Of a DNA stretch of 64,000 bases, positions 18,960 to 19,794 are shown piece after piece. Every line of letters starts with the position of its first letter. The stretch's first letter is position 1. The notes under the pieces are model-generated. The model searched no databases. It had not been told where the DNA came from and was given only the letters and a program-made list of their open reading frames with translations. Origin of the DNA: Margaritispora aquatica. Its lineage: Eukaryota; Ascomycota; Leotiomycetes; Helotiales; Discinellaceae. Location: positions 62,001 through 126,000 of the forward strand of contig VJWN01000026.1 in the NCBI GenBank assembly GCA_007644065.1, in the 5' to 3' direction. The position numbers were made by a program, and so were the translations under genes.

Positions 18960-19689
18960 CTAGTGCTTGCGAGCAGCTTTCTTGGCCTTCTTCTTTGGCT
19001 CTCTTGCCTCAATCTCATTCCCTGCTTCATCATACTAAATACTCGTCAGTGTGCAAACTTAAGGTGAAGCGACGAAATGATAAAAGGGTATATACATCTG
19101 CCTCGCTTGCGTCATCAATCTCGTTTCCATCTGGATGTTGTGTCAGCAGATGTTTTATGCTTGGAATACGAGTAGGTAAATGTAGGATGAGTCAGGTGGA
19201 GACAAACATACCAGCATCATATTCGAAATCATTTGTGCCACGCTTAGCTTTAGCCGCCTTCTTCGCTTTCTTCTTTGGTTCCCTAGCTTCGATTTCATTG
19301 CCAGCGGCATCATACTCGATCTCACTCTCACCATCTAATTCATTTCCGTCGGCATCATATTCAAAATCGTTGGTTCCACGCTTAGCTTTAGCTGCCTTCT
19401 TTGCCTTCTTCTTTGGCTCGCGAACCTCGATCTCATTGCCCTCGGCATCATATTCAAAATCAGTGGTATCGGCTGTCTCAATCTCGTTGCCGTCTGCGTC
19501 GTACTCGAAATCCGCACGTTTCTCAATCTCGTTTCCCTCAGCATCGTATTCAAAATCGTTGGTGCCGCGCTTCGCCTTCGCCTTCTTCTTGGGCTCGCGA
19601 GCCTCGATCTCATTGCCTTCGGCATCATATTCAAAATCAATGGTATCGGCTGTCTCAATCTCATTACCAGCTGCGTCGTATTCGAAGTC
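18960..19689 (-). repeat. Nine-copy coding repeat of the secreted protein
   Basis: The tandem units of about 36 bases encode D-F-E-Y-D-A-x-G-N-E-I-E. They begin at protein residues 36, 53, 80, 95, 112, 143, 158, 189 and 206. Units 7 (E-I-E-Y-D) and 9 (D-Y-D-E-A-G) are the most diverged. Both introns fall inside or next to repeat units, so the array spans all three exons. Confidence 0.85.
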
Positions 19690-19794
19690 CGGGTTGCGGG
19701 ACACAAGAGACGAAATGCTTGTGCCGACGGGAGCGGATTGCACAGCGAGGGAGAGGCAGAAGGCCAGGATCATGGAGGCTGTTGCGGCGCGCAT
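18960..19794 (-). CDS. Secreted tandem-repeat protein with Kex2-like sites
   Basis: Three exons, 19794-19212, 19130-19096 and 19034-18960, give 230 residues. A signal peptide is clear (MRAATASMILAFCLSLAVQS). The rest is nearly all repeats of the unit D-F-E-Y-D-A-x-G-N-E-I-E, nine copies, x being A, D or E; the last two are read only after splicing. Four lysine-rich linkers of REPKKKAK type separate groups of repeats, three of them ending in AKR. Dibasic KR sites end at residues 76, 93, 139 and 185. Signal peptide plus repeated cores divided by KR fits fungal Kex2-processed precursors, whose cores may be released as peptides and in dikaritin RiPPs are modified at tyrosines. No modifying enzyme gene lies nearby. 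Y-D-A-x-G-N also resembles the YD repeat of RHS proteins, possibly by chance. Function is unknown. Confidence 0.85.

What the first reader, a model, noticed from the sequence alone, without database searches (positions are those of the whole stretch)
18960..19794. Secreted repeat precursor with Kex2-like sites, possible new peptide family
Seen: signal peptide, nine near-identical D-F-E-Y-D-A-x-G-N-E-I-E units and KR sites at residues 75-76, 92-93, 138-139 and 184-185. Known: Kex2-cut repeat precursors in fungi yield mating pheromones, repellent or hyphal peptides, and dikaritin RiPPs. Inference: this gene releases several acidic, Tyr-containing peptides. The core does not match any precursor I know (ustiloxin, phomopsin, asperipin, epichloecyclin, alpha-factor type).
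Basis: partly seen in the sequence, partly recalled or inferred. Interest (0 to 1): 0.88.

Follow-up and report, generated by a model that had tools for sequence, protein, structure and literature searches.

The report
Fungal precursor of small hairpin peptides
A filamentous fungus carries a gene for a secreted protein made of nine near-copies of a short acidic peptide with protease cutting sites beside some of them; related fungi have the same peptide, two of them inside an unrelated protein, so it is probably cut out and released, but what it does is not known.

Summary
In detail: a minus-strand gene (19794..18960, three exons, 230 residues) encodes a hydrophobic leader and nine DFEYDAxGNEIE-type units with KR at 75, 92, 138 and 184. 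Eight units differ at synonymous sites but keep the peptide: 10 residue changes against 31.7 expected without selection. Relatives occur in Mollisia scopiformis, Phialocephala subalpina, Coleophoma and metagenomes; across the 32-protein set, 65 of 99 scored units are followed by KR or RR. This is the architecture of the known, widely catalogued Kex2-processed repeat proteins (KEPs); the core was not found in the text searched (survey supplements unavailable). No UstYa match lies on its contig, so a cyclised dikaritin is unlikely. This copy has few KR sites: cleavage there would give one single-core 15-mer and four 44-54-residue pieces with two cores and a basic tail. AlphaFold draws each complete unit examined as the same short beta-hairpin, at low confidence. 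Unexpectedly, two Coleophoma species carry the same KR-bounded core inside an unrelated secreted protein, suggesting a portable peptide cassette. Cleavage and function are inferred, not shown.

The parts
18960..19794 (-). KEP-type precursor gene, 693-base CDS in three exons, 230 aa
   Evidence: homologues
19212..19794 (-). exon 1 (signal peptide, units 1-7, start of unit 8)
19096..19130 (-). exon 2, 35 bases (end of unit 8, start of unit 9)
18960..19034 (-). exon 3 (rest of unit 9, basic tail, stop)
19735..19794 (-). predicted signal peptide, residues 1-20 (cleavage before AP inferred)
   Evidence: by eye; matching leader pattern in 23 of 32 proteins of the set; helix 3-20 in the model
19654..19689 (-). 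unit 1, DFEYDAAGNEIE, residues 36-47
19603..19638 (-). unit 2, DFEYDAEGNEIE, residues 53-64
19522..19557 (-). unit 3, DFEYDAEGNEIE, residues 80-91; the only unit with KR close on both sides
19477..19512 (-). unit 4, DFEYDADGNEIE, residues 95-106
19426..19461 (-). unit 5, DFEYDAEGNEIE, residues 112-123
19333..19368 (-). unit 6, DFEYDADGNELD, residues 143-154
19288..19323 (-). unit 7, EIEYDAAGNEIE, residues 158-169
19114..19230 (-). unit 8, DFEYDADGNEID, residues 189-200, interrupted by intron 1
19008..19101 (-). unit 9, ADYDEAGNEIE (degenerate), residues 205-215, interrupted by intron 2
19567..19572 (-). KR site, residues 75-76
19516..19521 (-). KR site, residues 92-93
19378..19383 (-). KR site, residues 138-139
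19240..19245 (-). KR site, residues 184-185
19567..19599 (-). basic module REPKKKAKAKR
19378..19422 (-). basic module REPKKKAKKAAKAKR
19240..19284 (-). basic module REPKKKAKKAAKAKR
18963..19004 (-). C-terminal basic module REPKKKAKKAARKH

Best explanation
The gene encodes a Kex2-processed repeat protein. The leader sends it into the secretory pathway; Kex2 cuts after KR in the Golgi, Kex1 trims the basic ends, and acidic peptides built on the core [F/W]-x-Y-D-A-x-G-N-E-I-E are secreted as linear, hairpin-prone peptides acting outside the cell, as a signal or an interaction peptide. In this copy the main products would be two-core peptides with a lysine-rich tail plus one 15-mer. Shown: gene anatomy, conserved core under purifying selection, homologues with a common leader and mostly dibasic borders. 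Inferred: cleavage, the linear state, the hairpin, the extracellular role.
For: 10 residue changes among eight units against a neutral mean of 31.7, 0 of 5000 simulations as low; pS 0.96, pN 0.07 over 28 unit pairs. Homologues to E 3.4e-37 and a profile search. 65 of 99 units followed by KR/RR, 15 by xR, 19 by neither; cleanest case P0002, 6 of 6 units ending in KR. 4 of 4 window KR lie just before a unit. P-domain in the genome. pTM 0.18 and 0.18: no global fold; 7 of 7 complete units in exon 1 and 5 of 5 in P0004 show paired strands EY/EI (the P0004 register read by eye). The same KR-bounded core sits in an unrelated secreted protein in two Coleophoma species, which suggests that the excised peptide is the functional unit.
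Against: No peptide, transcript or protein data. In the window only 1 of 9 units is directly followed by KR; P0001 (Mollisia) 1 of 4 and P0036 (Phialocephala) 0 of 2 scored units. 8 of 32 proteins in the set have no unit directly followed by KR/RR, some of them truncated or intron-read-through frames. Hairpin confidence is low (mean pLDDT 65.5 and 59.4). Most relatives are unnamed metagenome frames. The unit pattern itself fixes several core positions, so counts at those positions are biased.
Confidence: 0.7

Rival explanations
1. The protein is secreted largely uncut, as an extended charged repeat protein (wall, matrix or metal-binding), and the KR dipeptides are incidental to a lysine-rich linker.
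For: 3 of 4 KR in the window end the lysine-rich AKAKR linker; only one lies in the context EIEKR. Units are acidic and linkers basic, which could hold an uncut protein together. The basic module is conserved too (pN 0.11 against pS 0.76 over four copies). Some relatives have no KR after units.
Against: In relatives without such linkers (P0002, P0004, P0026) the KR still sits at each unit border; no global fold predicted (pTM 0.18).
Confidence: 0.17
2. It is a dikaritin-type RiPP precursor whose core tyrosine is cross-linked by UstYa-family enzymes encoded elsewhere in the genome.
For: Every unit has a Tyr next to Asp; the genome has UstYa genes (21 exon matches). PMC7329392 (section 7 read) reports Tyr in 65.6% of repeats of KEPs with a DUF3328 gene nearby against 38.2% without.
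Against: 0 of 21 UstYa matches lie on contig C19 (which scores best candidates only); in the survey such genes lie on average 3.09 genes away. The Pfam scans of 23 neighbouring window ORFs found no tyrosinase or UstYa (ORFs under 180 codons not scanned).
Confidence: 0.08
3. It is the alpha-type mating pheromone precursor of this fungus.
For: Same architecture; the genome has a STE2 receptor; my two pattern searches did not find a tandem alpha-factor gene, which leaves the pheromone gene unidentified.
Against: No XA/XP (Ste13) run after the KR sites and no GQ or PG in the core; PMC10569646 (passages read) gives cores such as RCGHPGQPCG for Mollisiaceae and neighbours.
Confidence: 0.02
4. It is a YD/RHS-repeat protein, as Pfam and some source names say.
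For: PF05593 at 60.7 bits, cut-off 22; three relatives named YD repeat and one RhaS with RHS repeats by their source.
Against: The score sums copies of one short motif: a single unit with flanks gives no Pfam match; no fold match in the PDB below E 7; best PDB sequence match an Rhs protein at E 0.021.
Confidence: 0.02

Closest known systems
Kex2-processed repeat proteins (KEPs; Le Marquer 2019 PMC6339444, Umemura 2020 PMC7329392)
   Same: Leader, at least three similar repeats between dibasic sites, lineage-restricted, unknown function.
   Different: Core [FW]xYDAxGNEIE is not among the conserved motifs in the Le Marquer sections read (10, 17); few KR in this copy; lysine-rich modules between core pairs; the core also occurs in a second carrier.
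KEP type #24 (G-5/P-1) of Umemura 2020
   Same: Includes Coleophoma, lists RHS_repeat among its Pfam matches, rich in Y and D (sections 6 and 7 read).
   Different: Mollisia and Phialocephala are not in its genus list; identity of the motif could not be checked (figures and supplement not held).
Dikaritins (ustiloxin, phomopsin, asperipin-2a)
   Same: Kex2-bounded Tyr-containing repeats behind a leader.
   Different: No UstYa match on this contig; different core.
Ustilago maydis Rep1 (repellent) peptides
   Same: Linear peptides cut from one secreted precursor, about as long as the two-core pieces here (recalled).
   Different: No sequence comparison was made; Rep1 peptides form amyloid-like fibrils (PMC9769878 introduction), these are strongly acidic with a basic tail.

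Membership tests
KEP | N-terminal signal peptide | tested here: inconclusive
   Hydrophobic leader, matching leader pattern in 23 of 32, helix 3-20; SignalP not available
KEP | Three or more repeats of at least 8 aa between KR/KK/RK/RR, none over 100 aa (PMC7329392, section 13) | tested here: met
   Five pieces of 45-56 and 17 aa at KR, each with one or two units; the survey's own program was not run
KEP | Dibasic borders conserved in homologues | tested here: met
   65 of 99 units KR/RR, 15 xR, 19 neither; 24 of 32 proteins with at least one; weaker in P0001, P0036 and the window copy
KEP | Cleavage by Kex2 in the cell | not testable with these tools
   P-domain gene present; no peptide data
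Dikaritin RiPP | UstYa (DUF3328) gene nearby | tested here: not met
   0 of 21 matches on contig C19 (best candidates only)
Dikaritin RiPP | Cross-linked core peptide | not testable with these tools
   needs mass spectrometry
Ascomycete alpha-pheromone | Ste13 XA/XP runs and GQ/PG turn in the core | tested here: not met
   KR is followed by GTN or ADF; no GQ or PG in the protein (sequence)
RHS/YD repeat protein | Pfam PF05593 cut-off | tested here: met
   60.7 against 22 bits, but no match for one unit with flanks
RHS/YD repeat protein | RHS shell fold | tested here: not met
   pTM 0.18, no PDB fold match with E 0.001 or better; low-confidence model

The most novel reading that the evidence does not exclude
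The core is a portable, self-contained peptide cassette: a KR-bounded acidic beta-hairpin (TEPFTYDAEGNEIEKR and kin) that helotialean fungi deliver from two unrelated secreted carriers, a dedicated repeat precursor (this gene) and, in Coleophoma, an inserted stretch in a broadly conserved secreted protein. The peptide itself, not the carrier, would be the conserved extracellular ligand.
Probability: 0.45. Interest if true: 0.62.

Novelty: new member of a known kind. Interest (0 to 1): 0.42.

Why it matters
Most KEP peptides have no known function and their cores differ from genus to genus. A core conserved across several helotialean genera, maintained by selection in every unit and shared by two unrelated carriers is a good candidate for a real extracellular ligand, and it gives defined peptides to look for. 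It also shows why automatic names mislead: sources label relatives 'YD repeat' or 'RhaS with RHS repeats'.

Tried and rejected
RHS/YD protein: rejected as above. Paralogues: a protein search of the genome gave this gene plus one weak match on C3 (E 0.015) that reads as part of a Sec63-like gene (my reading, no family search); the DNA core pattern hit 7 units of this gene and one lone, non-repeated site on C25. Alpha-factor by pattern: 39 and 12 matches, none in tandem; 20 of the 39 translated and none convincing, the 12 not translated: inconclusive. Viral contigs: 3 loci, matches of 25-35% identity, not followed up. Phage records: no match. Literature strings: one paper holds DFEYD and is about yeast ribosome assembly (listing only); 9 papers hold 'feyda' only, 8 listed, the five other strings at zero in those; none for the carrier or Coleophoma strings; CSEP0039 none. 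Species: not identified; the carrier's own exon matches leotiomycete proteins at 57-65% and unnamed metagenome ones up to 76% among the best 25 (where some named species are printed as 'metagenome' because my name table was partial). From, P0013-P0023 (11 of 23) were dropped as bacterial YD-type: P0013 and P0014 read, the other nine by Pfam label only.

Full report
What is there. The gene lies on the minus strand at 19794..18960. Splicing two introns of 81 and 61 bases gives a 693-base CDS and 230 residues. The nine units start at residues 36, 53, 80, 95, 112, 143, 158, 189 and 205; KR stands at 75, 92, 138 and 184. The layout has a higher order: pairs of units followed by a lysine-rich module (REPKKKAKKAAKAKR and variants), four times, with one single unit (residues 80-91) in between. 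Both introns interrupt a unit.

Is it a gene under selection? Between the eight units that align without gaps, synonymous positions differ almost freely (pS 0.96) while the peptide is kept (pN 0.07; 28 pairs, not independent). A simulation from the consensus with the same number of base changes gives 31.7 residue changes on average, never fewer than 23 in 5000 runs; 10 are seen. The basic module is also kept (pS 0.76, pN 0.11, four copies, one of them out of register at its end). The open frame on the other strand (290 codons) has no such support that I looked for.

Relatives. One sequence search and one profile search, out of three allowed, gave the set used here: P0001-P0012, P0024-P0042 and the window, 32 proteins; 11 of the 23 rows were dropped as bacterial YD-type. 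Named members: Mollisia scopiformis (P0001, 48% identity, E 3.4e-37), Phialocephala subalpina (P0036) and Coleophoma cylindrospora (P0008); the others listed are unnamed or metagenomic. A leader of the form MRASTASMILAFCAMLAVQA matches my pattern in 23 of 32, and an EPKKK-type tail in 20 of 32. Of 59 distinct units, positions not fixed by my search pattern are also conserved: A5 51, I/L/V10 57, E11 45 of 59.

Processing sites. Of 99 units scored, 65 are followed directly by KR or RR, 15 by another residue and R, 19 by neither; of 59 distinct units 31, 12 and 16. P0002, P0004, P0026 and P0027 are textbook KEPs, with KR after each scored unit. The window copy (1 of 8 scored units), P0001 (1 of 4) and P0036 (0 of 2) are not. 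I did not test which state came first. In the window, KR cleavage with removal of the basic ends gives pieces of 54, 15, 44, 44 and 45 residues, pI 4.1-4.5 (leader cut before residue 21 assumed).

Shape. AlphaFold on exon 1 with 23 sequences: mean pLDDT 65.5, pTM 0.18, with short paired strands at E-Y and E-I in 7 of 7 complete units. On P0004 with 19 sequences: pLDDT 59.4, pTM 0.18, the same in 5 of 5 units (read by eye). No PDB fold match with E below 7. The conservation pattern (aromatic, Y, D-A-x-G-N turn, E-I) fits a hairpin, but the model is weak evidence.

Context. The 64-kb neighbourhood reads as general cell biology: Rab-type GTPase, KRI1, FIT protein, potassium transporter, 6-phosphogluconolactonase, MIF4G/MA3 protein, GST, SET protein (23 other ORFs of 180 codons or more scanned). 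None of the 21 UstYa matches of the genome is on this contig. The gene is single copy. Kex2's P-domain and STE2 are present.

A second carrier. The third search, with the Coleophoma protein, showed that it belongs to a different family: 735 proteins at E 0.001 or better, 120 listed, across Leotiomycetes and Sordariomycetes, some named CSEP0039 or Ppe by their source. Scanning all 120, only the two Coleophoma proteins have the core, four copies and one copy, between KR sites (the 615 unlisted were not seen). Their unit TEPFTYDAEGNEIEKR matches units of the leader-type family at 14 of 16 (P0030, P0006) and of the window at 13 of 16. The orthologue in this genome (L030) lacks it, while a paralogue (L032) carries four copies of a different acidic repeat ending in DAKKR or DAKKK, and Phlyctema vagabunda has another acidic repeat in the same family. 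So this carrier seems to take up charged repeat stretches; common descent of the core in both carriers is likely by length and identity, but convergence was not tested at the DNA level.

Literature. PMC7329392: abstract, sections 6, 7, 13 and passages read; PMC6339444: abstract, sections 10, 17, 24; PMC9769878: abstract and introduction; PMC10569646: abstract and passages. Searches for the core strings found no description; supplements were not available. Umemura's type #24 includes Coleophoma and an RHS_repeat match, so P0008 may be catalogued there without comment. Kex2 preferences (KR over KK, AR poor) are recalled.

Verdict. A new, apparently undescribed core of a known class of precursor; processing likely, function unknown in the literature and inferred here as an extracellular peptide signal or interaction peptide. 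The portable-cassette reading is the part worth a specialist's time.

Noticed in passing
L032:1045-1707 (own genome C5:242135 region): A paralogue of the CSEP0039-named secreted family carries four tandem acidic repeats, SVADDDLTPEELEELEEEI(A/E)EEDAKKR-like, bounded by KKR/KKK: another possible cut repeat inside the same carrier family.
   Followed up: partly
P0008, P0043 (Coleophoma): The window's core peptide, KR-bounded, sits inside an unrelated conserved secreted protein in two Coleophoma species only, among 120 listed relatives.
   Followed up: partly
P0010, P0003, P0032, P0038, P0042 and window introns 19131-19211, 19035-19095: Frames of relatives seem to run into introns inside the core; P0010 reads as one unit per exon. 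Introns sit at different points of the core in different members, which suggests repeated exon duplication or intron gain (read from protein frames, no DNA seen).
   Followed up: no
own genome C48, C35, C6, C5, C1, C2: UstYa-family matches in small groups (for example C48:537838-543646, C35:42738-49103), possible dikaritin clusters unrelated to this gene.
   Followed up: no
18938-19810 +: A 290-codon stop-free frame lies antisense to the precursor gene.
   Followed up: no
43281-44435 and 44946-45800 +: Two neighbouring 2EXR-family genes.
   Followed up: no
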